The position numbers were made by a program, and so were the translations under genes. 64,000 bases of DNA from an uncultured Paracoccaceae bacterium. Its GTDB lineage: Bacteria; Pseudomonadota; Alphaproteobacteria; Rhodobacterales; Rhodobacteraceae. The stretch spans positions 62,001-126,000 of the forward strand of contig CANKYO010000009.1 of NCBI GenBank assembly GCA_947488175.1, read 5' to 3'. The notes under the pieces were generated by a model. That model saw only the letters and a program-made list of their open reading frames with translations. It made no database searches and was not told where the DNA came from. Every line of letters begins with the position of its first letter. Position 1 is the first letter of the stretch. This document shows, one piece after another, positions 37,101-54,633 of the stretch.

Positions 37101-37249
37101 AATGGTGGACCGAACTGTCCAGCGCCATTGCAGGTGGACTGGTCTTTGCCACGGTCCTGACCTTGCTGGTCACGCCCGCCATGCTGATGCTGGGTGAAAA
37201 ACGGGCGAAACGCGCGGTGGGCAGTGGCGTCGCCGTGCCCGCTGAATAA
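34130..37249 (+). CDS. RND efflux permease, pair 1
   Basis: 1039-residue AcrB-type inner-membrane proton antiporter with the expected 12-helix, two-loop layout. The N-terminal segment PKESNPEIPIPI is typical of the family. TM4 reads GMLVDGAIVTVE, keeping one of the two relay Asp residues found in AcrB. The C-terminal half repeats the pattern (GIVVNNNIVLID). Substrate range unknown. Confidence 0.93.
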   Translation: MKALIDAAFSRSKVAQLLLVFLLALGAFSYVAIPKESNPEIPIPIIYVSTSLDGISPQDSEDVLVRPMETEFASLTGLKSMTGRASEGHASVQLEFEPGFDADAALDKVREASDRAENDLPQDAQLTVTEINTALFPILNVILSGPVPERTLNSLADALKDDIEAVGGVLEVEIGGQRTELMEVLIDPTVFETYNITFDEIIGSITRNNQLIAAGAIESEAGRLVLKVPGLIENLEDVMELPVLVRGQTVVTFADVATIRRTFEDPTGFARIDGQPALALEVKKRVGANIIETVAEVREVIDLARVDWPDSVHVSFTLDESEQVKTMLSDLEANVIAAIILVMIVVVYALGLRSSLLVGLAIPGAFLTGVAGLYFMGFTMNIVVLFSLILVVGMLVDGAIVTVELADRYLHDGHDAKEAYAMAAKRMAWPIIASTATTLCVFFPLLFWEGVVGEFMKFLPITVIITLAASLFMALIFIPVMGGLIGKRQRQSAKSKAQLYAAERGDPRRMTGFMGGYIRLLEWSILRPGITLSFAVIALIGSFVAYGSLGNGLTFFPDVEPEYAQVEVLAKDNFSVYEQDDLVRQVEAKLAGYSEIASIYARSGGSAESGDAIGFLQLELTEWDTRRPVVLIAEDIRADMAEIPGIDVQVQTDSGGPGGGKPINLEVLAKNTEEQAAAVQTIIDTMDRLGGFIDVIESRPSPGVEWQITVDRSEAARSGADVALLGQAVQLLTRGITVADYRPDDSDSEVDIVVRFPAVDRTLAELESLRVPTNAGLVPISNFVSFEPAPRSGIITRIDQARVVSISADVAPDMLPNDQILALQSAIDDLDLPPSVRVKFGGEAEEQAEAMTFLIGAFVSAIGLMFLILLTQFNSFWQAFVVMSAIIFSIAGVLLGLMVTGRPFGVVMGGIGVIALAGIVVNNNIVLIDTYNNLKHAGLSPLEAALRTGAQRLRPVVLTSVTTALGLMPMVIGLNINFFTREIVYGAPSTQWWTELSSAIAGGLVFATVLTLLVTPAMLMLGEKRAKRAVGSGVAVPAE

Positions 37250-37251
37250 CC

Positions 37252-38079
37252 TCAGACCCGCAGGCCCAGAATTTCGCGGGCCTGCGCGGTTGTGGCCACA
37301 GGCCGGTCGTAACGTGCACAAATCTCTGCCGCGCGGGTGACAAGCGCGGCATTGGACGGGGCAAGCGTATGCTTGTCCCAGCGCACATTGTCTTCCAGCC
37401 CGGTGCGGGTATGGCCGCCCGCCGCGATGGACCATTCATTGACCATGACCTGCCCGGCACCCACCCCTGCCGCACACCATTGCGCATCCGGGGCCAGCCG
37501 GTTCACCGTCTTGACGTAATAATCAAACACATCCTTGTCGACCGGCATGGCGTTCTTCACACCCATCACGAACTGCACATACAGCTGGCCGGGAATGCGT
37601 CCGTCGCGGTTCATCGTCACAGCCTGATGGATATGGGACAGATCGAACGCCTCGATCTCCGGCTTGACCTGATATTTGCGCATCTCGGACGCCAGCCAAT
37701 TCACCAGATCAGGCGGGTTTTCATAGACGCGTGACGGAAAATTGTTCGACCCCACCGACAACGATGCCATATCCGGGCGCAAGGGCAACATCCCGCCCCG
37801 TTCCTTGCCCGCACCCGACCGGCCCCCGGTGGACAATTGAATGATCATACCCGGGCAATGTTTCTGCACACCTTCCATCAGTGCTGCGAATTTATCGGGG
37901 TCCGATGACGGGGTCTGATCGTCATTGCGCACATGGGCATGGCAGATCGCGGCCCCGGCCTCGAACGCGGCATGGGTGGATTCCACCTGCTCTGATATCG
38001 TGACCGGCACCGCCGGATTATCCTCTTTCCGCGGGACAGATCCGGTGATGGCCACACAGACGATACAAGGTTTGGTCAT
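37252..38079 (-). CDS. Beta-keto acid cleavage enzyme (BKACE, DUF849)
   Basis: 275-residue TIM-barrel enzyme of the BKACE family. Members condense a beta-keto acid with acetyl-CoA, releasing acetoacetate and a new acyl-CoA; the founder is 3-keto-5-aminohexanoate cleavage enzyme of lysine fermentation. Zinc ligands His47 and His49 (CHAHVRN) and the motif EIEAFDLSH are present. Start at 38079. It is the last gene of the 37-46 kb block, 10 bp after the aminotransferase gene. The true substrate cannot be inferred from sequence alone. Confidence 0.9.
   Translation of the reverse strand: MTKPCIVCVAITGSVPRKEDNPAVPVTISEQVESTHAAFEAGAAICHAHVRNDDQTPSSDPDKFAALMEGVQKHCPGMIIQLSTGGRSGAGKERGGMLPLRPDMASLSVGSNNFPSRVYENPPDLVNWLASEMRKYQVKPEIEAFDLSHIHQAVTMNRDGRIPGQLYVQFVMGVKNAMPVDKDVFDYYVKTVNRLAPDAQWCAAGVGAGQVMVNEWSIAAGGHTRTGLEDNVRWDKHTLAPSNAALVTRAAEICARYDRPVATTAQAREILGLRV
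37259..37286 (-). terminator. Hairpin at the end of the BKACE gene
   Basis: CGCAGGCCC (37259-37267) pairs perfectly with GGGCCTGCG (37278-37286), 10-base loop, inside the last codons of the BKACE gene and 9 bp from the convergent RND permease stop. It may help end transcription from both sides. No T-run. Confidence 0.35.
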
Positions 38080-38089
38080 GGTCAGGCCT

Positions 38090-39415
38090 TCAAGGGGTAA
38101 GGGCGGTCTCAACCGCGCCGGACAGCTTTTGCACCAGTTCGTCAATCTGGGCATCTTCGATGATGAATGGCGGGGCCAGCAGCACATGATCACCGGATTG
38201 CCCGTCGATTGTCCCGCTCATCGGGTAACAAATCATCCCGGCCTCGAACGCTGCCTTCTTGATCTTGGCGGCAATCTTGCGCGACGGGTCGAACGGCGCC
38301 TTGGTCTCGCGGTCCGCAACCAGCTCGACCCCCTGAAACAGGCCCCTGCCCCGGATATCGCCCACATGGGAATGCTGGCCAAATGCGGCCTGCAATGCCG
38401 CCATCAGTTTCTCGCCTTGGGTCTTCACACGCGGAATCAGATCACGCTCCAGCATCGCATTCACCACGGCCACACCAGCCGCCGCAGCCGTCGGATGACC
38501 CAGATAGGTATGCCCGTGCTGGAAAAATCCGGTACCGTCTTCGATTGTCTGGTAAATTTGACGGCTGCACAGCATCGCCCCGATCGGCTGATACCCCGCA
38601 CCCAACCCTTTGGCGATACACAGGATATCCGGGGCCACCCCATCCTGTTCGCAGGCAAACAACGTCCCCGTCCGGCCCATCCCGCACATGACCTCATCCA
38701 GGATCAGCAGAATGCCGTATTGGTCGCAAATCTCGCGGATACGCTTGAAATACCCCGGCGCGGGGGTCAGCGCCCCGGCGGTCGCACCGACAACCGGCTC
38801 GGCAGCAAAGGCCATCACGTTTTCCGGGCCGACGCGCAGCAGCTCTTCCTCCAGCAGGTTCGCCGCACGCAACCCGTACTCTTCCAGCGTCTCATCATCG
38901 CGCTTCAGGCGATATTCATAGCACGGATCAATATGGCTCATGTCGATCAACAGCGGACCAAACTGCGCGCGCCGCCAAGCGTTACCCCCTGCCGACAGCG
39001 CGCCCATCGTATTGCCGTGATAGCTTTGCCTGCGGGCGATCAGGCGGCCGCGCTGCGGCTCACCTTTTTCGACAAAATACTGCCGGGCCAGTTTCAATGC
39101 CGCTTCCATCGCCTCTGATCCACCTGACACCAGATAAACCCGGTCCAGATCACCCGGCGCATGGGCGATCAGCAGATCGGCCAGCGTTTCGGCAGGTTCC
39201 GACGTGAAAAACCCGGTATGGGCATAGGCCAGATTGTCCAACTGCGCCTTGACCGCATCAATGATCGTGCGGTCACCATGGCCAAGGCATGACACAGCCG
39301 CTCCACCGGACGCATCCAGATACTGCTTGCCGCTTTCATCATACAGATAACAGCCTTCGCCGCGCACCGCGACAGGCGGCAACTGCTTGGTATGTCTTGG
39401 AAAAATATGCGACAT
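38090..39415 (-). CDS. Class III (omega-type) aminotransferase
   Basis: 441-residue PLP enzyme, fold type I. Lys269 (CIAKGLGAGYQPIGA) is the Schiff-base lysine and Asp240 (LILDEVMCGMGRTG) contacts the cofactor nitrogen. This class acts on omega- or beta-amino groups and amines. It is flanked by the C45 hydrolase and BKACE genes with 10-bp gaps. A beta- or omega-amino acid substrate yielding a keto acid for BKACE is a reasonable inference. AGGAGG precedes the ATG at 39415. Confidence 0.93.
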   Translation of the reverse strand: MSHIFPRHTKQLPPVAVRGEGCYLYDESGKQYLDASGGAAVSCLGHGDRTIIDAVKAQLDNLAYAHTGFFTSEPAETLADLLIAHAPGDLDRVYLVSGGSEAMEAALKLARQYFVEKGEPQRGRLIARRQSYHGNTMGALSAGGNAWRRAQFGPLLIDMSHIDPCYEYRLKRDDETLEEYGLRAANLLEEELLRVGPENVMAFAAEPVVGATAGALTPAPGYFKRIREICDQYGILLILDEVMCGMGRTGTLFACEQDGVAPDILCIAKGLGAGYQPIGAMLCSRQIYQTIEDGTGFFQHGHTYLGHPTAAAAGVAVVNAMLERDLIPRVKTQGEKLMAALQAAFGQHSHVGDIRGRGLFQGVELVADRETKAPFDPSRKIAAKIKKAAFEAGMICYPMSGTIDGQSGDHVLLAPPFIIEDAQIDELVQKLSGAVETALTP

Positions 39416-39425
39416 CCGCACCTCC

Positions 39426-40397
39426 TCAGGCGGCACCGGGGATTTGCACCCGGCGCCCGCCTTCCTGAAAATCATCCAGCCCCAGCGCCCAGACCGTGCC
39501 TGGCCAACGCACCTCCATCTGCCGCAGGCGCGGGCGATAGACCGCCGTATAAAGCGTACCGAACCCCGCATCGAACGCCGTCGAGTAAAGCGGCGGACGC
39601 AGGAAAGCACCGATGAACTTTTCCTCGGGATCGCGGTGCAGGGTCAGGCGCTGCAACAGGAACCGTTCGCGTTCGACCGTGGCAGTAAACCGGGCATGGC
39701 TGATCCATTCCACGTTTTCCTGATGGTTGGTCGCAACAGCGGCATGGGTGATGACAGCAGGCCGGTCGGGGGCCATCATCGCTGTCAGATACTTGCGCTT
39801 GGCGTCCAGGACGGTGACGTTATAGCTCATATGCGTGGGCACCCGCGCCAGCACCTCGCCCGCCTCTTCTGTCGTCTCGCAGGTCTGCAGCACATAGCGG
39901 AGTATCAGCGGCACACCGAAACCATCGCCAACCACACGCCTGCCGCCAAAGGTCAACGATATCGCCAGACCCGCATCATTCATGCCATCGACCAGACCCC
40001 ACAGCCCGTCAGACGTGCCCATCACACGCCTGCCCTGCCATTTCGTGCGCAGGATCAGGCTGTCGAATGCGTTCGGATTATAGTCATAATTGCGTACCAG
40101 TACCGGCTCTTCGCCCGGCCAGACCGCCTGACTGCAGCCTGTCAGATAAGGCGGCGGGCAATAAAAGCTCAGAAACCGCGCCGCCTGATCACCGCCACCC
40201 GCCAGATCGCACAGCTCTTCGTACAGCGGTATGATCTCTGGCATATGCTGGGTCAGCGCGCGTCTACTTTCCAGATAGCTCGCGCGCGCCGCGTCGCCCT
40301 CTTTCAGCCACCAGCGTTTGTAATCCGGCCAGTATTCGGCGAAAAGCCCGGCCCATTTCGGGCCGGGCAAATCTTCGCTGAGGGCGCGCCAAAGCAT
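39426..40397 (-). CDS. C45-family Ntn-hydrolase (acyltransferase/amidohydrolase)
   Basis: 323 residues similar to the acyl-CoA:6-aminopenicillanate acyltransferase / peptidase C45 family. The predicted autocatalytic nucleophile is Cys88 in YLTGCSQAVW, followed by VRNYDYNP and GLWGLVDGMNDAGLA typical of these Ntn hydrolases. They self-cleave and then hydrolyse or form amide bonds. In this cluster an N-acyl or peptide-like conjugate is the likely substrate (inference). Confidence 0.85.
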   Translation of the reverse strand: MLWRALSEDLPGPKWAGLFAEYWPDYKRWWLKEGDAARASYLESRRALTQHMPEIIPLYEELCDLAGGGDQAARFLSFYCPPPYLTGCSQAVWPGEEPVLVRNYDYNPNAFDSLILRTKWQGRRVMGTSDGLWGLVDGMNDAGLAISLTFGGRRVVGDGFGVPLILRYVLQTCETTEEAGEVLARVPTHMSYNVTVLDAKRKYLTAMMAPDRPAVITHAAVATNHQENVEWISHARFTATVERERFLLQRLTLHRDPEEKFIGAFLRPPLYSTAFDAGFGTLYTAVYRPRLRQMEVRWPGTVWALGLDDFQEGGRRVQIPGAA

Positions 40398-40406
40398 AGG
40401 TTTTCC

Positions 40407-41864
40407 TTACATGATCTTGAACGCAGGATCAGCCAGCGCCGGGCCCGCATTGGCCACCGGCAGCGGCTTGCCCGACACCGATTGTTTGATGCCGTGGATC
40501 CACTTTTTCGCCCGTTCATTCAACTGGAAACTCTTGGTCATCGACCGGCCACGGGTCACCAGAATACCGATATCGGCGCCTTCATACCGGTAATCACCCG
40601 GCTGCAGGATCCGCAGGAAAAACGCCTCGTTCTCGCTTTCAACAGCACGGCGGTGATAATCGAACCGGTCAAAGACCACACGCCCGTCTTCCAGCATCTT
40701 GTAGATACCCGTTTCCGGCGCTTCGGTGCAGATATCAACGCTGTCCTCGGTATGCTTGATCACCATCTGCGACCAGCTGTCGATCATGTCCGGGTCAGCC
40801 CAGCGGCTGTTCAACTCATCCACATCCAGATCGAATTTCTTCTTCGAAAATTCCAGCAGATGGAACAGGAACAGCGGGGCATCAGCATGGGCAAAGGCCG
40901 CATGATTGGTCATCGACGATGCACCGGTAATACGCGGATTCAATTCACCCAGCCACAGATCGCCGGTCTTCTTGTCGATCAGGAAATCAAGCTCGAAATA
41001 CCCGCGATAGCCTTCCTTGCGCAGCTGCTCGCCAAACTTGAACGTCAGATCACGGGCCTTTTCACGCACCTTGGGGGGGAATGCGGTGGACAGGATTTCA
41101 TTACCGCACCAGCCGCCGCGATAGGGGGTTAGCTCCTTGAACCCCACCAGTTCGGTCATCAGCGGACCAACGATGGTGCCTTCCTTGGTGGCACAGGCCT
41201 CAATCGCGGAACCGCGGCAATCGATCCGCTTCATGATCTTGATCTCGCCTTCGCCGACGATCTCGTGCTCGTGACGCCGGAAATCGGCCTCAGACTTGAT
41301 AAAGAACGTGGTGTGACCGCTGTCGCCAAAGGCCGATTGCAGGACCAGATCATTGCCCAGCTTGGCCTCTTTGCAGACCTCCTGTAGATGGGCGTAGTCC
41401 TTGACCTCTGACAGCGTGTTGGGGACAGACGGCACACCGGCCTTGTTCCCGATCCGCACCGTTTCGATCTTGTTGTCCATCGACGTGCGCAGCTTGGCCT
41501 TGGGGAACCAGACATCCGCGCCCAGTTCCTTTGACAACCGTTCCGTTTCCTCATCGAACATCAGGAACACGAACTTCGGCTTGCCGCCGCGGCGCTTGAT
41601 GAAATCAATCACCTCTTTGTGCTGCAGCAGATAGTTGTTGATATCCTCGATCGACTGGAACTCCGCATGCGGCTGTTCGGACGGGCAGAATACGTTCGGA
41701 TGCTTGCCACCATAACAGTCGATATAGCAGATATATTTGAAGTTCTTGACCCATTCATCGAGGCCCAGAAGGTTGAAATTCGTCGCCGAAATGAAATAGA
41801 TCGGGTCCTCATTGCGGTGAAAGAACCGCCGGATTTCTGAGATATTCTTGAGCATGGTTGCCAT
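40407..41864 (-). CDS. ATP-grasp ligase
   Basis: 485 residues with an ATP-grasp core: LVLQSAFGDSGHTTFFIKS (nucleotide loop), then GYFELDFLIDKKTGDLWLGE and ELNPRITGASSMTNHAAF (metal site). It resembles carbamoyl-phosphate/biotin-carboxylase-like folds but has no biotin carboxyl carrier partner. Such enzymes usually join a carboxylate to an amine through an acyl phosphate. The unusual C-terminal region (about 385-485) is unassigned. Tightly linked to the decarboxylase gene (15 bp). Confidence 0.85.
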   Translation of the reverse strand: MATMLKNISEIRRFFHRNEDPIYFISATNFNLLGLDEWVKNFKYICYIDCYGGKHPNVFCPSEQPHAEFQSIEDINNYLLQHKEVIDFIKRRGGKPKFVFLMFDEETERLSKELGADVWFPKAKLRTSMDNKIETVRIGNKAGVPSVPNTLSEVKDYAHLQEVCKEAKLGNDLVLQSAFGDSGHTTFFIKSEADFRRHEHEIVGEGEIKIMKRIDCRGSAIEACATKEGTIVGPLMTELVGFKELTPYRGGWCGNEILSTAFPPKVREKARDLTFKFGEQLRKEGYRGYFELDFLIDKKTGDLWLGELNPRITGASSMTNHAAFAHADAPLFLFHLLEFSKKKFDLDVDELNSRWADPDMIDSWSQMVIKHTEDSVDICTEAPETGIYKMLEDGRVVFDRFDYHRRAVESENEAFFLRILQPGDYRYEGADIGILVTRGRSMTKSFQLNERAKKWIHGIKQSVSGKPLPVANAGPALADPAFKIM

Positions 41865-41879
41865 GGTCTTGTCCTTTTC

Positions 41880-44621
41880 TTACTCGGCGGCTGTTTGGAT
41901 AGCTTTGGGTTTTGGCAAGGCGGCCAGCGCTTCGGCCGTGAAGACGCGCAACCCCAGATCGGCGCGGTACCCGTGGATCTCGTTGACATCGAGCGCGCGC
42001 ATGAATGACAGGATTTCCTGGCTGATCACCTGACCGGGCACGAGAATGGGAAAACCCGGCGGGTAGGGGATGATGAAGCTGGCCGATACGACCTCCTGCC
42101 CGGCATCCATCGCCTCCTTCAGCGATCCATTCAGTTCCAGATAATCGCAGTTCGCCTCATCATAACTGAGGTAATAGGCGGTCCGAATGTCCCCTTCCGG
42201 GGTCAGGTCGTCAGGGCGAAACGCATCATGGAACCGGCTGAAATCGGGCAGTGGCGGATAATTTTCCGTCAGGTTCTTCACCCGGCGATCAAATGACAGA
42301 CGCTCCATCTTGGATGCATCATCAAGCAGATCGTCCAGTTCATTCGCGATCTCGACCAGCACCTCGATCAGATAGGCAACAGATGACCGTGTGGTCCCGA
42401 TATTGGTCATGAACAGGACAGTGTTGCGGGATGTCTTGTTGATCTGGATGCCGTATTTATCCATCAACACGTCATTCTTGAATGTATCGCCGTCCCAACC
42501 TGTCCCGCCAACGGCAAGGGTCACACGGGTGGCATCCAGCACGAAATCGTCCTGTTCCCAGCAATCCCACATATCGGTCCAGCCCTGATCGACGTCGAAA
42601 TAGCTTTTGACGCCGCTTTGCCGGTATGCCTCGGGGATCATGTCGCCGGCGGTCAGCACGCGGAAATACTTCTGCAGCAACGGATGGCTGGTGATCGCCT
42701 TGCGCATTGCCATCGCCGCCTCGATCTGGCGCTGGACAAATTCGAACCCTTCCAGTTCGACCTGTCGTCGGCCCACATCCAGCGACGCGATGATCTGATA
42801 ATTGGGCGAGGTCGAGGTATGGGTCATATACGCCTCGTGAAACGACTGTTCGACTTCACCTTTGAAGTCCTGATCGTTCACATGGATCATCGAACCCTGC
42901 CGCAACGAGGTCAGCGTCTTATGGGTCGATTGGGTCGCGTAGACCCTGATCCGCGCATCCGGGGGTGCGATCAGGCGAGTGTCGATCAGTTCCTCATCGG
43001 ACGCATCATCCAGATCGGCCTGCTGTTCATCATAGGCGCGCTGATGCGCCTCGGTCCGCAGCCGCTTGCGCAGGTTGTTGGCGGTGCGCATCGCCGTCCG
43101 CTGGCGATAGGTCGGACTGAACCGGGCAAAGGCGAACCACGCCTCGTCCCACAGGAAAATCAGGTCTTTCTTGATCGCCAGGCATTCTTCCATCACCCGT
43201 TCAACGTTGTAAACCAGCCCGTCAAAAGTGCAGTTCGTCAAAAGCAGCATCCGCACGCGGTCCAGCTTCCCCGCAGCCTTCAGAGCCAGTAGCTGATGTT
43301 TGATTTCTTTCAGCGGGACAGCACCATACATCGAATATTCGTTCAGCGGGTAGCTATCGAGATAGACCACCTCGGCCCCGGCCAGCACCATGCCGTAATG
43401 GTGTGATTTGTGGCAATCGCGGTCCACCAGCACGATATCGCCGGGGCGGACGAGTGCCTGCACCACGATTTTGTTACAGGTCGATGTACCGTTGGTTGCA
43501 AAGAAGGTCTGTTTGGATCCAAAGGCCCGACTGGCTAGTTCCTGCGCCTCCTTGATTGGCCCGTGCGGTTCCAGCAGACTGTCCAGTCCACCAGACGTTG
43601 CCGAGGTTTCGGCCAAAAAGATATTCGGTCCGTAAAAGGCGCCCATATCTTGAATCCAGTGTGACCGGGTGATCGACTTGCCGCGGCTGATTGGCATCGC
43701 ATGGAAAACACCGGTTGGCTGTTTGGAATAGTTAACCAGTGCGGTGAAGAACGGCGTCTTATGACGCGCCGCCACCCCGCGCAGGATATTCAGGTGCAAC
43801 TCCATAAAGTCTTCCTGATTGTAGAAAACGCGCCGGCAGATCCCCAGATCAAGCCCCGCGATATCCTCGACCGACCGTTCCGTCACCAGATAAGCATCCA
43901 ACTCGGGGCGCACGCGCGCGATCAGACGGCAGAGCTCCGGTCCGTAATCCTCTGGCAGCATCGCCTCGATTGCTTCGGAGTCGCTGGCGTTACTGACATA
44001 TTTGCTCAGAATTTCGTTCGCGTTTTTCGATTTCAGAACCAGCCCGGGGCGAACCACAATGGCCTGGATATTGTGGTTGAACAAAACCGCGATCAAAGCA
44101 TCTTCAAGGCTGGGCACGACCACAGCCTCGTAATTGTATGGATCCTCCGGGCGGCGCATCCGCGACACGTTGCTTTTCAGCCAGCGTTCCTGATGGTCGT
44201 TCACGTTGTCGACGATCAACACCTCAAAATAGGGGCGTGTCATTGCGCGCGCTTCGGGCGACAGCATCGCCTCATCGTTATGTTCTTCGTCATCGGTGCT
44301 GTCACGGTCCAGCGGGATGGTCCGCCTGCGATAGGCCCCGGTCGTTAGGGCGCGCGTCACACGGTTGGTGGTAAAGGACAAATCCTCGAAATTGCCATGT
44401 TCGAACTGGCGGCGCATGTGATCAAAGGCCGCCATGCCCGGAAACGCCCAATAGGGTTCGATCAGCGCAAGCGACTCGAAAAGGTCTGCGATCCGTATCT
44501 TTAGCGCCGCCGCCTTCTTGCCGTTCGGCTCACGACAGATGGATGTCGTCGCCTCGCGCAGCGCGCTCCATCTGTCTGCCCGCAATTGTGTGGCGGAATA
44601 GTATTCGCTGACGGAATCCAT
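41880..44621 (-). CDS. Large Orn/Lys/Arg-type PLP decarboxylase
   Basis: 913 residues from the ATG at 44621. PLP fold type I core of the ornithine/lysine/arginine decarboxylase family: LDSLLEPHGPIKEAQ, NGTSTCNK, DRDCHKSHHYG, WDEAWFAFARF (491-501) and the Schiff-base Lys568 in QSTHKTL. It is clearly longer than enterobacterial members (about 710-755), with about 330 residues before the PLP domain and a charged insert of about 45 residues between 503 and 558. The exact amino acid substrate is not predictable. Confidence 0.88.
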   Translation of the reverse strand: MDSVSEYYSATQLRADRWSALREATTSICREPNGKKAAALKIRIADLFESLALIEPYWAFPGMAAFDHMRRQFEHGNFEDLSFTTNRVTRALTTGAYRRRTIPLDRDSTDDEEHNDEAMLSPEARAMTRPYFEVLIVDNVNDHQERWLKSNVSRMRRPEDPYNYEAVVVPSLEDALIAVLFNHNIQAIVVRPGLVLKSKNANEILSKYVSNASDSEAIEAMLPEDYGPELCRLIARVRPELDAYLVTERSVEDIAGLDLGICRRVFYNQEDFMELHLNILRGVAARHKTPFFTALVNYSKQPTGVFHAMPISRGKSITRSHWIQDMGAFYGPNIFLAETSATSGGLDSLLEPHGPIKEAQELASRAFGSKQTFFATNGTSTCNKIVVQALVRPGDIVLVDRDCHKSHHYGMVLAGAEVVYLDSYPLNEYSMYGAVPLKEIKHQLLALKAAGKLDRVRMLLLTNCTFDGLVYNVERVMEECLAIKKDLIFLWDEAWFAFARFSPTYRQRTAMRTANNLRKRLRTEAHQRAYDEQQADLDDASDEELIDTRLIAPPDARIRVYATQSTHKTLTSLRQGSMIHVNDQDFKGEVEQSFHEAYMTHTSTSPNYQIIASLDVGRRQVELEGFEFVQRQIEAAMAMRKAITSHPLLQKYFRVLTAGDMIPEAYRQSGVKSYFDVDQGWTDMWDCWEQDDFVLDATRVTLAVGGTGWDGDTFKNDVLMDKYGIQINKTSRNTVLFMTNIGTTRSSVAYLIEVLVEIANELDDLLDDASKMERLSFDRRVKNLTENYPPLPDFSRFHDAFRPDDLTPEGDIRTAYYLSYDEANCDYLELNGSLKEAMDAGQEVVSASFIIPYPPGFPILVPGQVISQEILSFMRALDVNEIHGYRADLGLRVFTAEALAALPKPKAIQTAAE

Positions 44622-44693
44622 CGGTCGTTCTCCCATTTGGGGCGACGACGCTGGGATGGATACGCGGCCTGGCAAGCCGCGTGTCAGCCTGCG

Positions 44694-45668
44694 TCAGCCA
44701 CCTGATGTCTTGCCCACAAAGGGCGAAATTCCATAGCCCAGCTTCGGCTGGCGGTCCTGTGCCTCAGCCTCCGCATCCGCTTGTACATCGACATGCAGTC
44801 CGGCCCGTGATCCTTGCTGGGGTATCTCGAGCGGCCCGAGTGTCTGCAGATAGGCATCGGTGCCACTGCTGCGATCATAAACCGAAAAATCGGCAGAGCG
44901 GTCACGGAAGCTTTTCAGAACCTGACCCAGGCCCTTCATTCCCGTTTCGCGCTGACGGCGAACCATGGACAGATCAACCTCGATCGGGAACATGTCCTCC
45001 TGCCCCGCCGACTGGTGCAGCACCAGCGATGTCGGATCAACCACAAGCGATTTGCCCACGCCACCGGCCCCCAGCCCGTTCACATCAATCACATAGCACT
45101 GGAACTGGGCCGCCGTCGCCCGGGCAATCGCCAGTTCAGCGTCACGGTCGGTGGTCCCAGTCAGGACAGGGTGCAACAGCACCTCGACCCCCTGACTGGT
45201 CAATTGGCGGGTCGTTTCCGGAAACCACATGTCATAACAGATCGACAGGCCGAACCGGCCCACATCCGGCACGTCGAAGACGCAGAATTCGGTGCCCGCG
45301 GCGATGCCAGCCTCATAAGGCAGGAACGGGAACATCTTGGCATAACGGCGAACGACATTGCCATCGGGGTCGATCACAAGTGACGTGTTGTAAACACGAC
45401 CATCTTCGGGATGTGTCAGAAACATCGACCCGGGGATCAGCCAGATCTTGTGCCGCCTTGCTGCATCGCAAAACCGGTCAATTACTTCGTTCTCGGGTGG
45501 CAGCTTATACTTTTCCAAGGGACCGAACGGGGCAAGTTCGCTGAACAGCACCATCTGGGTCCAAGGAAACCGCATCATCAGCACGTCAAGCCGATGCAGC
45601 ATGCCATCGACATTGGGTTGCAGGGCGTTGACGTACATTTGCACGCCAGCAATCGCGAAAGGGGTCAT
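44694..45668 (-). CDS. Carbon-nitrogen hydrolase (nitrilase superfamily)
   Basis: 324 residues with the catalytic triad Glu44 (FSELAPFG), Lys111 (YAKMFPF) and Cys144 (SICYDMWFPE). The family includes N-carbamoylputrescine amidase, beta-ureidopropionase and amide hydrolases; the branch here is uncertain. The C-terminal tail of about 50 residues is non-conserved. It is 72 bp upstream of the decarboxylase gene. Its GGAGAA ribosome site lies in one arm of a TCTCCG/CGGAGA hairpin (45678-45695). Confidence 0.9.
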   Translation of the reverse strand: MTPFAIAGVQMYVNALQPNVDGMLHRLDVLMMRFPWTQMVLFSELAPFGPLEKYKLPPENEVIDRFCDAARRHKIWLIPGSMFLTHPEDGRVYNTSLVIDPDGNVVRRYAKMFPFLPYEAGIAAGTEFCVFDVPDVGRFGLSICYDMWFPETTRQLTSQGVEVLLHPVLTGTTDRDAELAIARATAAQFQCYVIDVNGLGAGGVGKSLVVDPTSLVLHQSAGQEDMFPIEVDLSMVRRQRETGMKGLGQVLKSFRDRSADFSVYDRSSGTDAYLQTLGPLEIPQQGSRAGLHVDVQADAEAEAQDRQPKLGYGISPFVGKTSGG

Positions 45669-45736: not shown

Positions 45737-46168
45737 TTACGCCCTTACGACCAGAACTGAAACCGGTGACCTGCGGACAACACGGTCCGCATTCGATCCG
45801 ACAAGGAATTCACGGACCCGGTCCGGCTTGTGCGAGGCCATAACTACAAGGTCGCATTCAACCTCACCGATGGTTTTCAGGATCTTCTTGTGGATCTTGC
45901 CAAAGGCCAGATGCTGTTTGACCTGCACGTCCTCTGGTATCTCCTTTTCCACCAGATCATTCAGTGCCTTGTTGGCGGCAGCCACGGCCTTCTCCTCAAA
46001 ATCGTCGGGAAAGAACCCTTCGACCAAGGGCGTGCCCATATCAGGCACCACGGACATGATATGCAGCGTTCCGCTTGATGCGCGCACAAGCTCCACCGCC
46101 TGCGGTAGCGCCTTTTTCCAGGACGCAGGGTGGTTCAGATCGACGGTCAGCAAAACAGTATTGAACAT
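45737..46168 (-). CDS. Universal stress protein (UspA family)
   Basis: 143 residues, single Usp domain. The usual nucleotide loop is degenerate: ASHKPDRVREFLVGSNADRV lacks the first glycines, so ATP binding is doubtful. It is directly downstream of the TRAP permease gene (12 bp). UspA proteins linked to TRAP operons, such as TeaD, modulate transporter activity; a similar role is inferred. Confidence 0.88.
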   Translation of the reverse strand: MFNTVLLTVDLNHPASWKKALPQAVELVRASSGTLHIMSVVPDMGTPLVEGFFPDDFEEKAVAAANKALNDLVEKEIPEDVQVKQHLAFGKIHKKILKTIGEVECDLVVMASHKPDRVREFLVGSNADRVVRRSPVSVLVVRA

Positions 46169-46180
46169 GGTCCGTCCTTT

Positions 46181-48952
46181 CTATGCCGCAGCAGGTTTGC
46201 GGGCCGCGTTGGCACTGCGCCCGCGTTGCAGAAACACGATGAGTGCCAGCACCAACAGTGCGGGCAGGAACATCAGGTACTTGGTGGGCTGATCCACCGG
46301 GCGCAGCACACGTAGCACCTCTTGATCCCAATCCAGCCCGGCATCGGCTGCGGCACTGCCAAAGCTCACATCGTCGATGAACAGCGTCTCACCTTCGTTG
46401 CGGAAAAGCAGGCCCGCGTTTTCCAGCCGTTCGTCACCTGTCGCCCCCTCTTCAATCGGCAGGATCGCCACAAATTCGATGGGATCACCAAGGTCATTCA
46501 TGCCCGCAACCCGCAGCCTGAGGTCTTCACCAACAGGCGTGGCCAAGGCCGCATCAGCGATTTCAACCGGATCAACCTCGTTATAGGGGGGATAGATCAT
46601 GTCCATCCAGAACCCGGGTCGGAAAAGGGTGAAAGCGATCAAAAGCAGGGCAATGGTTTCGTAGAACCGGTTTTTGGCCATGAACCAGCCTTGCGTCGCC
46701 GCGGCAAACAGCAGCATCGCTATGGTCGCGACAATGAACACGAAGATACCCTGCGCCCACCCAACGCCGATCAACAACAATTCGGTGTTGAAGATAAATA
46801 GGAACGGCAGGGCCGCCGTGCGCAAGCTATAGAAGAAAGCAACGACCCCGGTCTTGATCGGATCGCCGCCCGAAACAGCAGCCGCCGCAAAACTGGCAAG
46901 CCCCACCGGCGGCGTCACATCGGCCATGATCCCGAAGTAGAACACGAAGAGGTGGACCGCGATCAGTGGCACGATCAGCCCGTTCTGCTGGCCAAGGGTT
47001 ACAATCACCGGGGCCAACAGGGCCGACACAACGATATAGTTTGCCGTTGTCGGCAGACCCATTCCGAGGATCAGCGACAGGATCGCCGTCAGGAACAGGA
47101 TCGCCAGAATGTTGCCGCCCGAAAGCACCTCAACCACGTCAGCCAGCGCCGAACCCACGCCGGTCTGGCTGACCGCGCCGACAATGATACCTGCAGTTGC
47201 GGTCGCAATGCCGATCCCGATCATGTTGCGCGCACCGGTTTCCAGCCCGTCGATCAGGTCTTTCACCCCCTGCACAACTGCACCGCCGAACGCCGTATCA
47301 CCCCGCATCAGCGCCATCAGTGGGCGTTGGGTGACAAGGATGAACACCATATAGGCCGTTGCCCAGAAAGCCGACAGACCGGGCGAAAGGCGATCCACCA
47401 TCAGCGCCCAGACCAGCACGACAACCGGCAAGATGAAGTGAAGGCCTGACCGGACAGTCGGTCCGGGCAACGGCAGCGTCGTGACCGGGGCATTCGGATC
47501 GTCAAGTTCCAGCGGCTCTTCCTTCGATGCCACGAACAACAGCCCGATATAAACGAGCGTCAGGAAAGCAAAGATGATGTAACCCGCTGTCTCGGGGAAG
47601 GCCGGGCGAATCCAGCCCATGCCGTAATAGACGATAAAGGAAATCGCGCAGATCGCGGCGATAGTGAACGCGATTCCGATCAGGCGGCGCACAATCGGCT
47701 TGGGCTCATAGGCGCGCGGCAGGCCTTCCATACCAGCCTTCAGCGCTTCCAGATGCACGATATAGACCAGCGCGATGTAGGAAATCACCGCAGGCAAAAA
47801 GGCGTGTTTGACCACGTCGAAATAGGGGATGCCCACATATTCGACCATCAAAAAGGCCGCAGCCCCCATCACCGGCGGCATGATCTGTCCGTTGACGGAA
47901 CTTGCCACCTCGACCGCGCCCGCCTTTTCGGAGTTAAAGCCGACCTTTTTCATGAGCGGGATCGTAAACGTTCCGGTTGTCACCACGTTGGCGATGGAAG
48001 ATCCCGAAATCAGCCCGGTCATCGCGGATGAGACCACAGCCGCCTTTGCGGGCCCGCCCTTGAGGTGGCCCATCAGACTGAACGCCACCTGAATGAAATA
48101 GTTACCGGCCCCGGCGCGGTCCAGCAGCGAACCGAACAAGACAAACAGGAACACGAAAGAAGTCGAAACACCCAAGGCGATGCCAAACACACCTTCGGTG
48201 GTGATCCACTGGTGATTGACGATCTCGGACAGGCTGTTGCCCTTATGGGCGATGATGCTGGGCATATATGGCCCCAACACCGTGTAGATCAGGAACACAG
48301 ATGCGACGATCATCAAGGCCGGCCCCAATGCCCGGCGTGTCGCCTCAAGCAGCAGCATCAGGCCGATCACTGCGACCACGAAATCCTGCATGATGGGCGC
48401 GCCGACACGGCCCGAGATCTCGCGGTAGTAAACAAAGAGATAAAGGGCGGCCAACGCCCCCACAACCGCCAACGCCCATTCCCAGATGGGAACGCGATCT
48501 TTGGGAGACCCCAGAACGATGGTGGCCACAACGGCCAAGGCAACTATCGGAATCCACCAGGTCGCTGTTTGTTCCTTGGCCCCCGTCATGAACAGGAACG
48601 CGAGAATCAACGGGACAGCAACGCCCAGTCCCAACTGAAATTTTGTGCGGGCGGCAGGAAAGGCCGCAAAAGCAAGGAATAGGGCGAAAGCCAGATGGAT
48701 GGATCGGCTTTCAGTATCATTGAAAACGCCAAAACCGACCATGAACGGGATGGGCGAGGCAATCCAAAGCTGGAACAATGACCATGCCAGCGCGGTGCAT
48801 GTCAGAAAAATCCCGACCGCACCTGCTGCCCCACGTCCGCCAGTGTCGGATGACGCAACCAGCGCATCCAGCTCTTCTTGGCTTAATCCGCCGCGCCCGT
48901 CTGCAGCATTTTCGACCGCAGCGGCCTGCTGTTGGTTTGGATTGTCAGACAT
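46181..48952 (-). CDS. TRAP transporter fused permease (4TM + 12TM, DctQM-type)
   Basis: 923 residues from the ATG at 48952. A soluble N-terminus precedes about 16-17 hydrophobic helices that combine the small DctQ-like and large DctM-like subunits (signature GLISGSSIANVVTTGTFTIP and QIMPPVMGAAAFLM). The C-terminal periplasmic part (about 780-900) resembles DUF3394, with a PDZ-like stretch (VSFGSAAADAGLDW) before a last helix. Such fused permeases pair with TAXI binding proteins and use a sodium or proton gradient. Confidence 0.92.
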   Translation of the reverse strand: MSDNPNQQQAAAVENAADGRGGLSQEELDALVASSDTGGRGAAGAVGIFLTCTALAWSLFQLWIASPIPFMVGFGVFNDTESRSIHLAFALFLAFAAFPAARTKFQLGLGVAVPLILAFLFMTGAKEQTATWWIPIVALAVVATIVLGSPKDRVPIWEWALAVVGALAALYLFVYYREISGRVGAPIMQDFVVAVIGLMLLLEATRRALGPALMIVASVFLIYTVLGPYMPSIIAHKGNSLSEIVNHQWITTEGVFGIALGVSTSFVFLFVLFGSLLDRAGAGNYFIQVAFSLMGHLKGGPAKAAVVSSAMTGLISGSSIANVVTTGTFTIPLMKKVGFNSEKAGAVEVASSVNGQIMPPVMGAAAFLMVEYVGIPYFDVVKHAFLPAVISYIALVYIVHLEALKAGMEGLPRAYEPKPIVRRLIGIAFTIAAICAISFIVYYGMGWIRPAFPETAGYIIFAFLTLVYIGLLFVASKEEPLELDDPNAPVTTLPLPGPTVRSGLHFILPVVVLVWALMVDRLSPGLSAFWATAYMVFILVTQRPLMALMRGDTAFGGAVVQGVKDLIDGLETGARNMIGIGIATATAGIIVGAVSQTGVGSALADVVEVLSGGNILAILFLTAILSLILGMGLPTTANYIVVSALLAPVIVTLGQQNGLIVPLIAVHLFVFYFGIMADVTPPVGLASFAAAAVSGGDPIKTGVVAFFYSLRTAALPFLFIFNTELLLIGVGWAQGIFVFIVATIAMLLFAAATQGWFMAKNRFYETIALLLIAFTLFRPGFWMDMIYPPYNEVDPVEIADAALATPVGEDLRLRVAGMNDLGDPIEFVAILPIEEGATGDERLENAGLLFRNEGETLFIDDVSFGSAAADAGLDWDQEVLRVLRPVDQPTKYLMFLPALLVLALIVFLQRGRSANAARKPAAA

Positions 48953-49057
48953 GTCATCCCCCTGCGGCCCAATTCGTGGGCGCGTCGTCAATTGTCCCTG
49001 CTATCCGGTGCGCCAGGCAGGGCCCGCCGCACCGTTTGTCCTTACGAAACGTCCGGC

Positions 49058-50014
49058 TTACATCCAGCCGCGTTCCTTGTAGTAACGCTCTGCGCCGGGG
49101 TGCAGCGGGGCAGACAGACCATCCTGGATCATCTGCTCTTCGGTTAAATTTTCAAACGCAGGGTGAAGACGCTTGAACCGGTCGAAATTGTCGAAAACGG
49201 CTTTGACGGTCTGATAGACAACGTCGTCATCCACGTCGGCAGAGGTGACAAATGTCGCCTTCACGCCAAAGGTCTGCACGTCATCAGGCGATCCTTCATA
49301 CATACCGCCCGGCACTGTGGCAGCGGCATAATAGGGATTGTCAGCGATCAGCTGATCAATCTCGGGGCCGGTGACCGGCACCAGAACCGCATCGACAGTT
49401 GATACGGCTTCCTGAATAGACCCATTGGGATGACCAACGGTATAGATGATCGCATCGACCTTGTTGTCACCAAGTGCGGCTGCCTGTTCGGCCGGCTTCA
49501 ATTCGGATGCCAGGGCAAAATCATCCATAGTCCAGCCAAGCGCATCCATCACGACCTGCATGGTCGCATACTGACCGGAACCGGGGTTGCCGATATTGAC
49601 CCGCTTGCCTTTGAGGTCCTCGAATGTGGTGATCCCGGCATCGGCACGAGCAATCACCGTAAATGGCTCACCATGAACGGAAAATACGGCGCGCGCGCCG
49701 TCGAACTGGTTGCCTTCGAATTCGGATGTGCCGTTATATGCGTGATACTGCCAGTCGGACTGGGCCACGCCCATATCCATGTCACCTGCCATGATCGCAT
49801 TGATATTGGCGATAGACCCGCCAGTGGACGGGGCCGTGCATTTCAGGTTGTGATCAGCAGTGCCACGGTTCACAAGCCGGCAGATCGACTGACCCACCAC
49901 AAAGTAAACCCCTGTCTGGCCACCTGTGCCAATGGTGATGAATTGCTCCTGCGCTGATGATGCGGACCCGGCCATCATGGCCCCCGCAAAGGCAAGGTAC
50001 TTAAAAACTTTCAT
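49058..50014 (-). CDS. TAXI-family TRAP solute-binding protein
   Basis: 318 residues with a signal peptide (MKVFKYLAFAGAMMAGSASS, cleavage near AQ-EQ). TAXI motifs are present: TIGTGGQTGVYFVVGQSICR and GMAQSD-like GVAQSDWQYHAYNG. It captures the substrate in the periplasm for the fused permease downstream (105-bp gap). Known TAXI ligands are glutamate and 2-oxoglutarate-type acids, but the ligand here is unknown. It leads the minus-strand block. Confidence 0.92.
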   Translation of the reverse strand: MKVFKYLAFAGAMMAGSASSAQEQFITIGTGGQTGVYFVVGQSICRLVNRGTADHNLKCTAPSTGGSIANINAIMAGDMDMGVAQSDWQYHAYNGTSEFEGNQFDGARAVFSVHGEPFTVIARADAGITTFEDLKGKRVNIGNPGSGQYATMQVVMDALGWTMDDFALASELKPAEQAAALGDNKVDAIIYTVGHPNGSIQEAVSTVDAVLVPVTGPEIDQLIADNPYYAAATVPGGMYEGSPDDVQTFGVKATFVTSADVDDDVVYQTVKAVFDNFDRFKRLHPAFENLTEEQMIQDGLSAPLHPGAERYYKERGWM

Positions 50015-50445: not shown

Positions 50446-51831
50446 TCAGCCTTGCAATTCTGCGACCGCTGCCGCCAGCGCATCCTCAAAGATCCCGAGG
50501 CCTTCGTCGATGATCGCGTCTGATGCCGTCAGCGGCACCATGATCCGCAATGCATTGCCATGCATCCCACAGGCCAACAGGATCAGACCACGCTGCAGCG
50601 CATGGGCGACGACTGCCTTGGTCAAAGCCGCATCAGGCGTTGCCGTTTCGAAATCCGTCACGAACTCAACCGCCAGCATCGCGCCAAGGCCGCGAATATC
50701 CCACATGCGGTAAGGGGCGACGCGCGCGCCAATCTCGGCAAATCGGGCGCGGAAATGCTCACCCAAGGCTGTCGAGCGGGCCAGCAGCCCCTCTTCCTCG
50801 ATCGCGTCAATCGCGGCCAACGCAGCCGCGCACGCGACAGGATTGCCGCCATATGTGCCACCAAGGCCACCGGGAATGACGGCATCCATCACCTCGGCCC
50901 GGCCAATCACACCGGCAATCGGATAGCCACCTGCCATGGATTTGGCGACGGTGATCAGATCAGGCACGACACCCGAATGCTCAATCGCAAACCATGTGCC
51001 AGTCCGGCCAAAGCCTGCCTGAATTTCGTCAGCGATCAACAGGATGCCATGGGTGTCGCAAATCTCGCGCAACGCCTGCATCATCTCGAACGGCACAGGG
51101 GTATACCCCCCCTCACCCAGCACAGGTTCGATGATAATCGCCGCAACCCGCTCTGGCTGCGCATCGGTCAGAAACAGGTTTTGCAAACCGGTCAGCGCGT
51201 CCTGCACCGTGATCCCGTCACGCACACTAGGGAACGGCGCGCGGTAGATGTCCGACGGGAACGGGCCCACGTCTTTCTTGTAGGGGGAAATCTTGCCTGT
51301 CATGCCCAAGGTCAGCAATGTGCGGCCGTGATAACCTCCGGTAAACGCGATGACTCCCGGACGCCCTGTCGCAGCCCGCGCGATCTTGACGGCGTTTTCG
51401 ACAGCCTCGGCCCCTGTGGTGACCAGAAGCGACTTCTTGGCGTGATCACCGGGGGCCAGCGCGTTCAGCTTTTCGGCCAGCGCAACATAGGGCTCGTAAG
51501 GCACAACCTGGAAACTGGTATGGGTATAGTGATCCTCTTGCGCCTTGGCGGCGGCAACCACCTTGGGGTGGCGATGACCAGTGTTCAGCACCGCAATTCC
51601 GCCAGCAAAGTCGATATACCGCGTACCTTCGACATCCCAAAGCTCTGAATTCTCTGCGTGATCCGCGAAAATCGGCGCTGCCGAAGCCACGCCGCGTGCC
51701 ACTGCGGCCTCGCGACGGGCCAGCAGATCGGCATTCGTCTTCGTCTCCGCAACCACATCCGGCACAACCGAGATGTTGGGCTTGCGTTTCGCGGCAGACT
51801 TGCGGGGTTTCTTTTTTACGGTGCTGGTCAT
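50446..51831 (-). CDS. gabT: GABA-type aminotransferase (class III)
   Basis: 461-residue PLP aminotransferase of the 4-aminobutyrate transaminase group, producing succinate semialdehyde. Schiff-base Lys297 ([16 protein letters not shown]), Asp268 ([14 protein letters not shown]) and [15 protein letters not shown] are typical. An unusual N-terminal extension of about 32 residues is Lys/Arg/Pro-rich ([13 protein letters not shown]) and absent from usual GabT proteins. It has its own terminator and faces a PuuR-like regulator gene. No succinate-semialdehyde dehydrogenase lies adjacent. Confidence 0.88.
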
Positions 51832-52053: not shown

Positions 52054-52608
52054 GTGGATATCGGAAAACGACTGCAGGATTTACGCAAGGCGCACGGTCT
52101 GTCCCAGCGGGAACTTGCCGCGCGGGCCGGTCTGACCAACGGTACCGTTTCGTTGATCGAACAGAACAAAACCAGCCCCTCGGTTGCCTCTCTCAAAAGC
52201 CTGCTCGACGCAATCCCGATGAGCATTGCCGAATTCTTTGCCACCATCGAAGAGGCGGAACCGACCAAATACTTCTATACGGTTGATGAGTTCACCGAAA
52301 TCGCCCCCCAGTCCGGGCAAACAGCGGTGTCACTGCGCCAGCTTGGCAATGCCAGCAGCCATACGCTGCAAATCCTTGACGAAACTTATCCCCCCGATGC
52401 CGACACTGGCCCGGAATTGCTGACCCATGCCGGTGAAGAAGCCGGGATCGTGACAGAGGGTGAGATTGAGGTGACCGTCGGTGATCAGATCAGGGTGCTG
52501 CGCGCGGGTGAAGGTTACCTTTTTGACAGCCGCCTGCCCCACCGGTTTCGCAACACCGGCAAGACACCCTGCCGGATCATCAGCGCCTGTACACCGCCGA
52601 CATTTTGA
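52054..52608 (+). CDS. XRE-family regulator with cupin sensor domain (PuuR-like)
   Basis: 184 residues from a GTG with GAGGGA upstream. N-terminal XRE helix-turn-helix (LRKAHGLSQRELAARAGLTN, then SLIEQNKTSPSVASL) is joined to a C-terminal cupin (LTHAGEEAGIVTEGEIEVTV; GYLFDSRLPHRFRNTG). This architecture matches PuuR and related regulators of putrescine/GABA catabolism. It is divergent from gabT and probably represses it. The ligand is unproven. Confidence 0.88.
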   Translation: MDIGKRLQDLRKAHGLSQRELAARAGLTNGTVSLIEQNKTSPSVASLKSLLDAIPMSIAEFFATIEEAEPTKYFYTVDEFTEIAPQSGQTAVSLRQLGNASSHTLQILDETYPPDADTGPELLTHAGEEAGIVTEGEIEVTVGDQIRVLRAGEGYLFDSRLPHRFRNTGKTPCRIISACTPPTF

Positions 52609-54502: not shown

Positions 54503-54633
54503 CTTGTACCCCCTCACTGGCTTCATCCCAATTCTGCAAGTGGAGCATTTGCACGGATCAAGGTCCAGCCGTCAAATTGCTGCACGGGCACCGAACGGTC
54601 GGTGATCCATCGGCGCTCGACGAATTTGCAGAT

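What the first reader, a model, noticed from the sequence alone, without database searches (positions are those of the whole stretch)
37252..45668. Candidate uncharacterised pathway: decarboxylase, ATP-grasp ligase, Ntn-hydrolase, aminotransferase, BKACE and nitrilase in one run
Six minus-strand genes with gaps of 9-72 bp encode a PLP amino-acid decarboxylase (makes an amine), an ATP-grasp ligase (can make an amide), two amide-bond hydrolases of unrelated folds (C45 Ntn-hydrolase and nitrilase), a class III aminotransferase and a beta-keto acid cleavage enzyme. Each family is known, but I know of no described pathway with this set. The logic resembles gamma-glutamylated polyamine catabolism with an ATP-grasp enzyme replacing the glutamine-synthetase-like ligase: protect an amine as an amide, transaminate the free end, release the acyl group, and cleave a beta-keto product with acetyl-CoA. 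A biosynthetic role (N-acylated amino acid or osmolyte) is an equal alternative.
Basis: partly seen in the sequence, partly recalled or inferred. Interest (0 to 1): 0.85.

Follow-up and report, generated by a model that had tools for sequence, protein, structure and literature searches.

The report
Uncharacterised four-enzyme amide-cycle gene module
Four enzymes (a decarboxylase, an ATP-driven ligase and two amide-cutting enzymes) stay together in distantly related bacteria and sit beside different nitrogen-rich nutrient pathways; what they convert is unknown, but the sequence argues against the polyamine-type substrate that the annotation suggests.

Summary
The six genes are present as described, but they are not one six-gene pathway. 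A core of four, nitrilase-like amidase (NIT), decarboxylase (DC), ATP-grasp ligase and C45 Ntn-hydrolase, is conserved: in this order on one strand in 76 of 80 alphaproteobacterial loci. In 25 genomes of 14 other families, C45 lies near the ligase in 25 of 25, DC in 23, NIT in 17. Aminotransferase (28 of 75) and BKACE (5 of 75) are optional. The core lies inside ectoine operons in four genera of one family, beside agmatinase or arginine genes elsewhere, and near gabT here. DC belongs to the Rv2531c family, activity unknown. Its 105 sequences (100 distinct) lack acidic positions that Lys/Orn/Arg decarboxylases keep (N526 in 105, Q663 in 104 of 104). The ligase, annotated 'biotin carboxylase', lacks K238 and E296 of that enzyme in 19 of 19. 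Best reading: DC makes an omega-amino acid (GABA or beta-alanine) from an acidic or acylated amino acid; ligase and C45 make and break an amide around it. Substrates and step order are inferred; nothing has been assayed. New variant of a known kind.

The parts
37252..38079 (-). BKACE (beta-keto acid cleavage enzyme, 3-oxoadipate:acetyl-CoA type); accessory. The ORF is open to 38193
   Evidence: PF05853; NF053568 495 bits vs cut-off 350; nearest solved 3chv, 3fa5, 3no5; ATG at 38079, start inferred
38090..39415 (-). Class III aminotransferase AT3 (PRK07483 family); accessory. The ORF is open to 39610
   Evidence: PF00202; NF005685 770.5 bits vs 485; ATG at 39415, start inferred
39426..40397 (-). 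C45 (AAT-family) autoproteolytic Ntn-hydrolase; core
   Evidence: PF03417, NF040521; C88, R102, N103, D105 invariant in 13 sequences
40407..41864 (-). ATP-grasp ligase, named biotin carboxylase (PRK06524) in databases; core
   Evidence: NF005096 759.6 bits vs 684; lacks AccC K238 and E296 in 19 of 19 and R338 in 18 of 19, keeps K116, E288, N290, R292 in 19 of 19
41880..44675 (-). PLP fold-type I decarboxylase of the Rv2531c family (start more likely 44636 or 44621); core
   Evidence: PF01276; nearest solved 9n0n, 9n0o, 9n0p, E about 4e-248; 9N0O is Rv2531c in PMC12910592
44694..45668 (-). NIT, carbon-nitrogen hydrolase (nitrilase superfamily); core, less universal
   Evidence: PF00795; E44, K111, C144 invariant in 15 sequences
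45737..46168 (-). Universal stress protein
   Evidence: PF00582; in 26 of 80 loci
46181..48991 (-). Fused TRAP permease
   Evidence: TIGR02123 647.8 bits; in 42 of 72 loci with enough flank
49058..50014 (-). TAXI-type TRAP solute receptor (predicted importer, ligand unknown)
   Evidence: TIGR02122; solved relatives 8s4j, 9ibo, 9oz4 and more distantly 1us4/1us5 'putative GluR0 ligand binding core'
50446..51831 (-). gabT, 4-aminobutyrate transaminase; frequent neighbour
   Evidence: TIGR00700 551.9 bits vs 506.65; in 34 of 80 loci
52054..52608 (+). HTH-cupin regulator of PuuR-like architecture (likeness recalled), divergent from gabT
   Evidence: HTH_3 and Cupin_2

Best explanation
The finding is a conserved catabolic module of four enzymes, NIT-DC-ligase-C45, with AT3 and BKACE as lineage-specific additions. 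DC removes the alpha-carboxylate of an amino acid whose far end is not a free ammonium or guanidinium group: most likely glutamate or aspartate, giving GABA or beta-alanine, or else an omega-N-acylated diamino acid. The ATP-grasp enzyme then joins an amine and a carboxylate as an amide through an acyl phosphate, with the omega-amino acid as one partner. C45 later hydrolyses that amide and frees the omega-amino acid, which gabT (or AT3) transaminates into central metabolism. This is a make-and-break amide cycle of the protect/deprotect type. NIT removes an amide nitrogen, perhaps from a deaminated by-product, as its Nit1/omega-amidase relatives do. Shown: gene linkage, intact catalytic residues, lost acidic positions in DC, lost biotin-carboxylase residues in the ligase. 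Inferred: every substrate, the amide itself, the order of steps and the NIT role.
For: Linkage: four in order in 76 of 80 loci; C45 in 25 of 25 and DC in 23 of 25 loci outside the family, gene order varying. In 23 genomes of the window's genus, ligase, NIT and full-length close C45 occur in the same five. DC pocket: of 9 columns acidic in 7 basic-type decarboxylases, 7 stay acidic, while E663 becomes Q (104 of 104) and D/E211 becomes K/R in 99 of 105; E526, E in 6 of the 7, is N in 105 of 105 and R530 is gained in 104 of 105. [quoted passage not shown] Neighbours: gabT in 34 of 80 loci; aspT antiporters beside two 47-49% identical DC paralogues; ectoine genes, whose end product is aspartate, around the module in four loci. 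Two DC orthologues (81-82%) occur in genomes with no ligase, NIT or C45 match, so DC can work without the ligase.
Against: No enzyme here has been assayed. Agmatinase in three loci and arginine-type genes in Shinella, Roseateles XES5 and Sinorhizobium RAC02 fit a basic substrate or a GABA product equally well. A plain Glu-to-GABA route needs neither ligase nor C45. The symporter next to the Cupriavidus oxalaticus core matches DctA better than GltP, both under cut-off, so it does not show an amino-acid substrate. Positions 211, 526, 530 and 663 come from sequence alignment only; contact with substrate was not shown, the role of E526 is recalled, and AdiA has T there. Rv2531c shares N and Q but has I at 530. 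Bicarbonate as the ligase's acid is not excluded: its nearest solved relatives are bicarbonate users. C45 and NIT relatives also occur without the ligase. Within the genus doeA is in 2 of 5 module genomes and 10 of 18 others, with no match in the window's genome.
Confidence: 0.37

Rival explanations
1. One reading: an analogue of the gamma-glutamylated putrescine (Puu) pathway. DC makes putrescine, agmatine or 1,3-diaminopropane; the ligase protects the amine as an amide; AT3 or another transaminase and a dehydrogenase oxidise the free end; C45 releases GABA or beta-alanine.
For: PuuR-like regulator and gabT near the window cluster; agmatinase upstream of the core in L119, L141 and L142, all one genus; DC followed by doeC-like dehydrogenase and doeD-like transaminase in ectoine loci; AruI-like decarboxylase plus aldehyde dehydrogenase with ligase and C45 in four plasmid loci without adjacent DC.
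Against: DC family lacks acidic positions kept by basic amino-acid decarboxylases; an aldehyde dehydrogenase was recognised in only 4 of 80 loci (DoeC-like 3, other 1, similarity to my reference set only); AT3 optional.
Confidence: 0.23
2. Salvage of omega-N-acylated diamino acids, for example N-gamma-acetyl-diaminobutyrate formed by the ectoine hydrolase: DC decarboxylates the acylated amino acid, DoeD/DoeC oxidise it to N-acetyl-beta-alanine and C45 deacetylates.
For: Module lies between doeX and doeC in L123, L125, L136 and L137. PMC5924519 and PMC3187862 (passages): DoeA gave alpha- and gamma-acetyl-DABA 2:1 in E. coli, gamma does not seem to be a DoeB substrate, and its role is unclear. 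Loss of acidic positions suits an acylated side chain.
Against: Gives no job to the ligase. No doeA match in the window's genome, and no positive association within the genus. The four loci come from one family.
Confidence: 0.1
3. Conjugation cycle like Drosophila black-ebony-tan (recalled): DC makes beta-alanine or GABA, the ligase attaches it to a foreign or toxic amine, and C45 (the family recalled for Tan) cuts the conjugate.
For: The same three reaction types in one gene run; C45 near the ligase in 25 of 25 loci outside the family.
Against: No amine acceptor is indicated by any neighbour; importers and gabT suggest growth on the compound rather than detoxification; the Tan relationship is recalled, not tested.
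Confidence: 0.13
4. Biosynthesis of a small amide or dipeptide (osmolyte or signal), with C45 and NIT for turnover.
For: An ATP-dependent ligase is in the core; one Rhizobium copy lies about 10 kb from nifA/nifB.
Against: Importer genes (TAXI-TRAP, oligopeptide-type ABC, amino-acid permease) and catabolic genes surround many copies.
Confidence: 0.1

Closest known systems
Gamma-glutamylated putrescine (Puu) pathway of E. coli (recalled)
   Same: Amide made with ATP and later hydrolysed (inferred here); GABA transaminase and HTH-cupin regulator nearby
   Different: Ligase is ATP-grasp, not glutamine-synthetase-like; hydrolase is C45, not PuuD type; a decarboxylase with an unusual pocket is part of the core
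Ectoine/hydroxyectoine catabolism (doeABXCD, eutBC)
   Same: In four genera of one family the core is embedded in this operon
   Different: The passages I read of PMC13188858, PMC5924519 and PMC3187862 do not mention the core genes; 'decarboxylase' occurs 0 times in the main texts of the first two
Rv2531c-type amino acid decarboxylase (PDB 9n0n, 9n0o, 9n0p)
   Same: Same family over nearly full length, E 4e-248; N at 526 and Q at 663 as here
   Different: Activity of the solved protein not clarified (PMC12910592, passages); I at 530 in the printed alignment, R in 104 of 105 here
Arginine catabolic cluster with AruI-like decarboxylase (Shinella, Roseateles XES5, Sinorhizobium RAC02)
   Same: NIT, ligase and C45 relatives lie in the same cluster
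   Different: DC is not adjacent; in Roseateles XES5 it lies elsewhere on the same plasmid. Racemase, D-amino-acid dehydrogenase and the AruI-like enzyme take its place

Membership tests
Biotin carboxylase | Lys238, Glu296 and biotin-binding Arg338 (AccC numbering, roles recalled) | tested here: not met
   K238 is W and E296 is A or I in 19 of 19; R338 column is T in 18 and R in 1, alignment weak there
ATP-grasp superfamily | ATP/Mg residues (K116, E288, N290, R292; roles recalled) | tested here: met
   19 of 19; weak profile hits to biotin carboxylase, CPS and PurK chains
Basic amino acid decarboxylase (Lys/Orn/Arg) of the OKR fold | PLP lysine, Asp330, His245, Trp333 | tested here: met
   105 of 105
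Basic amino acid decarboxylase (Lys/Orn/Arg) of the OKR fold | Acidic residues at 526 and 663 for the basic side chain (role recalled; acidic channel per PMC4832331) | tested here: not met
   N in 105 of 105 and Q in 104 of 104; AdiA itself has T at 526
C45 (AAT-type) Ntn-hydrolase | Nucleophile Cys and RNxD motif | tested here: met
   C88, R102, N103, D105 in 13 of 13; self-processing not testable
Nitrilase superfamily amidase | Glu-Lys-Cys triad | tested here: met
   E44, K111, C144 in 15 of 15
BKACE | PF05853 full-length match and equivalog score | tested here: met
   it belongs to its family, but not to the conserved module (5 of 75)
Puu-type amide protection pathway | Ligase forms gamma-glutamyl amide of a diamine, hydrolase removes it | not testable with these tools
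   Needs enzyme assays
Ectoine catabolism | Co-occurrence with ectoine hydrolase doeA | tested here: not met
   doeA in 2 of 5 module genomes and 10 of 18 others of the genus, no match in the window genome; yet inside doe operons in 4 of 25 outside loci, one family

The most novel reading that the evidence does not exclude
A new catabolic strategy: an amide-protection cycle built on an ATP-grasp ligase and a C45 Ntn-hydrolase around GABA or beta-alanine, fed by a PLP decarboxylase of the OKR fold that has switched from basic to acidic or acylated amino acids, and placed as a unit into ectoine, arginine and GABA pathways.
Probability: 0.33. Interest if true: 0.75.

Novelty: new variant of a known kind. 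Interest (0 to 1): 0.57.

Why it matters
It would assign four poorly named proteins ('biotin carboxylase', 'Orn/Lys/Arg decarboxylase', 'peptidase C45', 'nitrilase') to one pathway in marine, rhizobial and soil bacteria, give a testable substrate class for a decarboxylase family with solved structures but no known activity, and may bear on the unclear fate of a by-product of ectoine degradation.

Tried and rejected
Biotin carboxylase for the ligase: rejected by missing residues. DC as a replacement for PanD: PF02261 has no match in any of 23 same-genus genomes, with or without DC, so uninformative. Ectoine as the general substrate: doeA does not track the module within the genus and has no match in the window's genome. 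AlphaFold model of the ligase: mean pLDDT 38.6, not used for a fold search. S. meliloti locus tags SMa0677-0684 were searched and passages of PMC7268258, PMC13327599 and PMC10385936 read; I could not tie them to the cluster in L015, so nothing rests on them. C45: only two weak hits among solved structures, E 0.015 and 0.009. Mirror-tree correlations among the four proteins are 0.87-0.96 in 39 selected loci, but the shared ancestry of the hosts was not removed, so this is weak support.

Results against a tight module. C45 relatives occur in 102 plasmid records at E 1e-20 and the ligase in only 32; the C45 of Sulfitobacter pontiacus (46%) has no ligase beside it. NIT relatives of 48-51% or less occur without it too. 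Two of 25 outside loci lack DC (L121, with a shortened ligase gene, and L139), and neither shows an AruI-like gene within the stretch. Some rhizobial copies look broken (DC in two annotated pieces in L016, ligase fragments in S. medicae).

Limits of the samples. The 80 loci are the best 80 of 459 relatives found, 89-95% identical in the ligase; the named ones are Rhodobacterales (placement recalled), two are titled only Alphaproteobacteria. The 25 outside loci come from 14 families; seven are one family (five of one genus) and four another. The 105 DC sequences hold 100 distinct ones, 26 of them under 75% identical to the window. The three extra control decarboxylases (L010-L012) are presumed, not annotated. 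The partial SpeC row was aligned but not counted there. Loci without enough flank were left out of the denominators. For the solo DC in L147 I searched six neighbours, five with a family; those of L148 were not searched.
Full report
What is there. The six genes are present. On the minus strand, in order of transcription: gabT, TAXI receptor, fused TRAP permease, USP, NIT, DC, ligase, C45, AT3, BKACE, with a divergent HTH-cupin regulator beyond gabT. gabT is about 430 bp from the receptor gene, so it may be a separate unit.

Which genes belong together. I took the best 80 of 459 genome contigs relatives of the ligase and located the window proteins in them. Where the contig is long enough, NIT is present in 76 of 76, DC in 77 of 77 and C45 in 77 of 77; the four stand in the same order on one strand in 76 of 80. 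AT3 is present in 28 of 75, BKACE in 5 of 75, TRAP permease and TAXI receptor in 42 of 72 each. In whole genomes (23 of the genus, 14 of other families), the ligase is in 5 of 37, NIT in the same 5 plus one 51% match, C45 in the same 5 plus a 48% relative and a contig-end fragment. DC is in the same 5 and in two genomes without the rest, at 81-82% identity (where 60 genomes were searched and 9 had DC at 81% or more). In one of those two I searched six neighbours: MYG1, CobW, ZinT, DUF2254 and AI-2E families and one without a match, none suggestive. AT3 at 85% or more is in the 5 module genomes and G020, and at E up to 1e-100 in 14 of 37. BKACE at E up to 1e-60 is in 17 of 37; it sits directly after AT3 in G000, G013, G017 and G020.

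Outside the family. Searches of 289, 398, 43 and 341 genomes with the ligase profile gave 8, 11, 7 and 10 hits (some genomes recur and the E limits differ). In 25 loci from 14 other families, within 8 kb of the ligase: C45 25 of 25, DC 23, NIT 17 (two of the eight absences are contig ends), AT3-like 3, BKACE 0. Gene order changes (NIT-DC-ligase-C45, NIT-ligase-C45-DC, DC-ligase-C45) while the genes stay together, which is good evidence of a shared function. Ligase identity to the window falls to 40-46% in six loci.

Contexts. In L123, L125, L136 and L137 (four genera of one family, another class) the order is doeA-doeB-doeX-NIT-ligase-C45-DC-doeC-doeD, with eutB-eutC following in L123 and L136. 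For L123 the names rest on NCBIfam: DoeA 670 vs 613 bits, DoeB 491 vs 403, EutB 466 vs 413, a cyclodeaminase matching PRK08291 (443 vs 408), a dehydrogenase just below the SSADH cut-off (608 vs 646) and a transaminase matching PRK07482 (806 vs 687); doeX is named by position and Lrp similarity only. The other three rest on 75-89% identity to L123. In one genome of the window's genus (G013, seen also as L085) the core with AT3 and BKACE abuts doeD-, doeB- and doeA-like genes at 54-60%. In Shinella, Roseateles XES5 and Sinorhizobium RAC02, ligase and C45 lie among an agmatinase-family gene, AruI-like decarboxylase, aldehyde dehydrogenase, D-amino-acid dehydrogenase, racemase and RidA, with NIT a few kilobases off on the other strand and no adjacent DC. 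Cupriavidus necator N-1 has NIT-ligase-C45 without DC, with an AruI-like protein (37%) and a PuuC-like dehydrogenase (no DC match on that plasmid at E 1e-100). In Cupriavidus oxalaticus a MocR/GabR-type regulator and a dicarboxylate-symporter-family gene flank the core; the symporter's best names, DctA then GltP, are under cut-off. Agmatinase lies upstream of the core in L119, L141 and L142, one genus. Rhizobium and Sinorhizobium plasmids carry DC-ligase-C45, one of them about 10 kb from nifA/nifB. In L127 and L128 a urea-transporter/M23 fusion protein is encoded upstream of DC.

The decarboxylase. The nearest solved relatives are 9n0n, 9n0o and 9n0p. A review lists 9N0O as Rv2531c and says its activity was not clarified (PMC12910592, passages; the structure paper itself was not held). 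In an alignment of 105 family members (100 distinct) with E. coli CadA, LdcC, SpeF and AdiA, the PLP lysine, Asp330, His245 and Trp333 are kept, but E526 (E in three, T in AdiA) is N in 105 of 105, R530 is gained in 104 of 105 and E663 is Q in 104 of 104 with a residue. With three more presumed basic-type enzymes from related genomes, nine columns are acidic in all seven; seven stay acidic in the family and two change, 663 and 211 (K/R in 99 of 105). PMC4832331 (passages) cites a negatively charged patch in the active-site channel as the potential substrate site of LdcI and AdiA. I therefore think a free basic amino acid is unlikely. Two paralogues of 47-49% identity sit beside genes annotated as aspartate-alanine antiporters, which favours an acidic substrate for that branch. 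That these columns touch the substrate was not shown.

The ligase, C45 and NIT. The ligase keeps the ATP/Mg residues but lacks K238 and E296 of biotin carboxylase in 19 of 19, so the database name is probably wrong in function. Its profile reaches biotin carboxylase, carbamoyl phosphate synthetase and PurK chains only weakly; which acid it activates cannot be read from sequence, and bicarbonate is not excluded. C45 and NIT have complete catalytic sets.

Mechanism. The most economical reading is an amide cycle around an omega-amino acid: DC supplies GABA or beta-alanine (or acts on an acylated diamino acid), the ligase forms an amide, C45 opens it and gabT or AT3 drains the product. In the four plasmid loci without adjacent DC, an AruI-like decarboxylase with a dehydrogenase, which could also lead to GABA or guanidinobutyrate, stands near the ligase; the two outside-family loci without DC (L121, L139) do not show this. 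This partial replacement is what makes me favour GABA-type products. The amide partner is unknown and the step order is inferred.

Known or new. Of my ten paper searches, four were aimed at the core or its setting; none of their listed titles describes it, in an open-licence library only. The other six looked up locus tags, family and PDB codes, Rv2531c and decarboxylase residues. The passages read from a 2026 survey of ectoine clusters (PMC13188858) do not mention it; its main text has no 'decarboxylase', 'peptidase' or 'carbon-nitrogen'. Each enzyme family is known. The combination, and probably the decarboxylase specificity, appear to be new.

Noticed in passing
window 32799-37249: Two overlapping plus-strand genes, the second a 1039-aa protein that reads to me like an RND-type efflux pump, end two bases short of the BKACE stop on the opposite strand. 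Families were not searched.
   Followed up: no
window 52655-55337: A solute-binding protein of ABC family 5 (SBP_bac_5) and a TetR regulator lie beyond gabT; a 75% relative of the binding protein is also near the cluster in L029.
   Followed up: partly
L113 8031-10757 and L114 7983-10724: A second branch of the same decarboxylase family sits between or beside two genes annotated aspT (aspartate-alanine antiporter) in Ensifer and Rhodobacter, suggesting an acidic amino-acid decarboxylation/antiport system.
   Followed up: partly
L119 3549-4982: A ~477-494 aa frame between agmatinase and NIT, with relatives in L142 and L143, has no Pfam or NCBIfam match at the limits used.
   Followed up: partly
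L127 3483-5657 and L128 14371-16542: A urea-transporter domain fused to an M23 peptidase domain is encoded upstream of DC-ligase-C45.
   Followed up: no
L121 9517-10170: Ligase gene reduced to its C-terminal part next to a C45 gene and an AT3 relative (63%), with no DC: perhaps a decaying copy of the module.
   Followed up: no
L147 and L148: Solo DC orthologues (81-82%) in two genomes of the window's genus; neighbours in L147 include MYG1, CobW and ZinT families.
   Followed up: partly
G000 and 22 same-genus genomes: No PanD (PF02261) match in any of 23 genomes, so the source of beta-alanine for pantothenate in this genus is unclear.
   Followed up: no
L112 9989-11083: Sulfitobacter pontiacus plasmid: a C45 relative (46%) beside a PHB-depolymerase-family esterase, without the ligase.
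   Followed up: no
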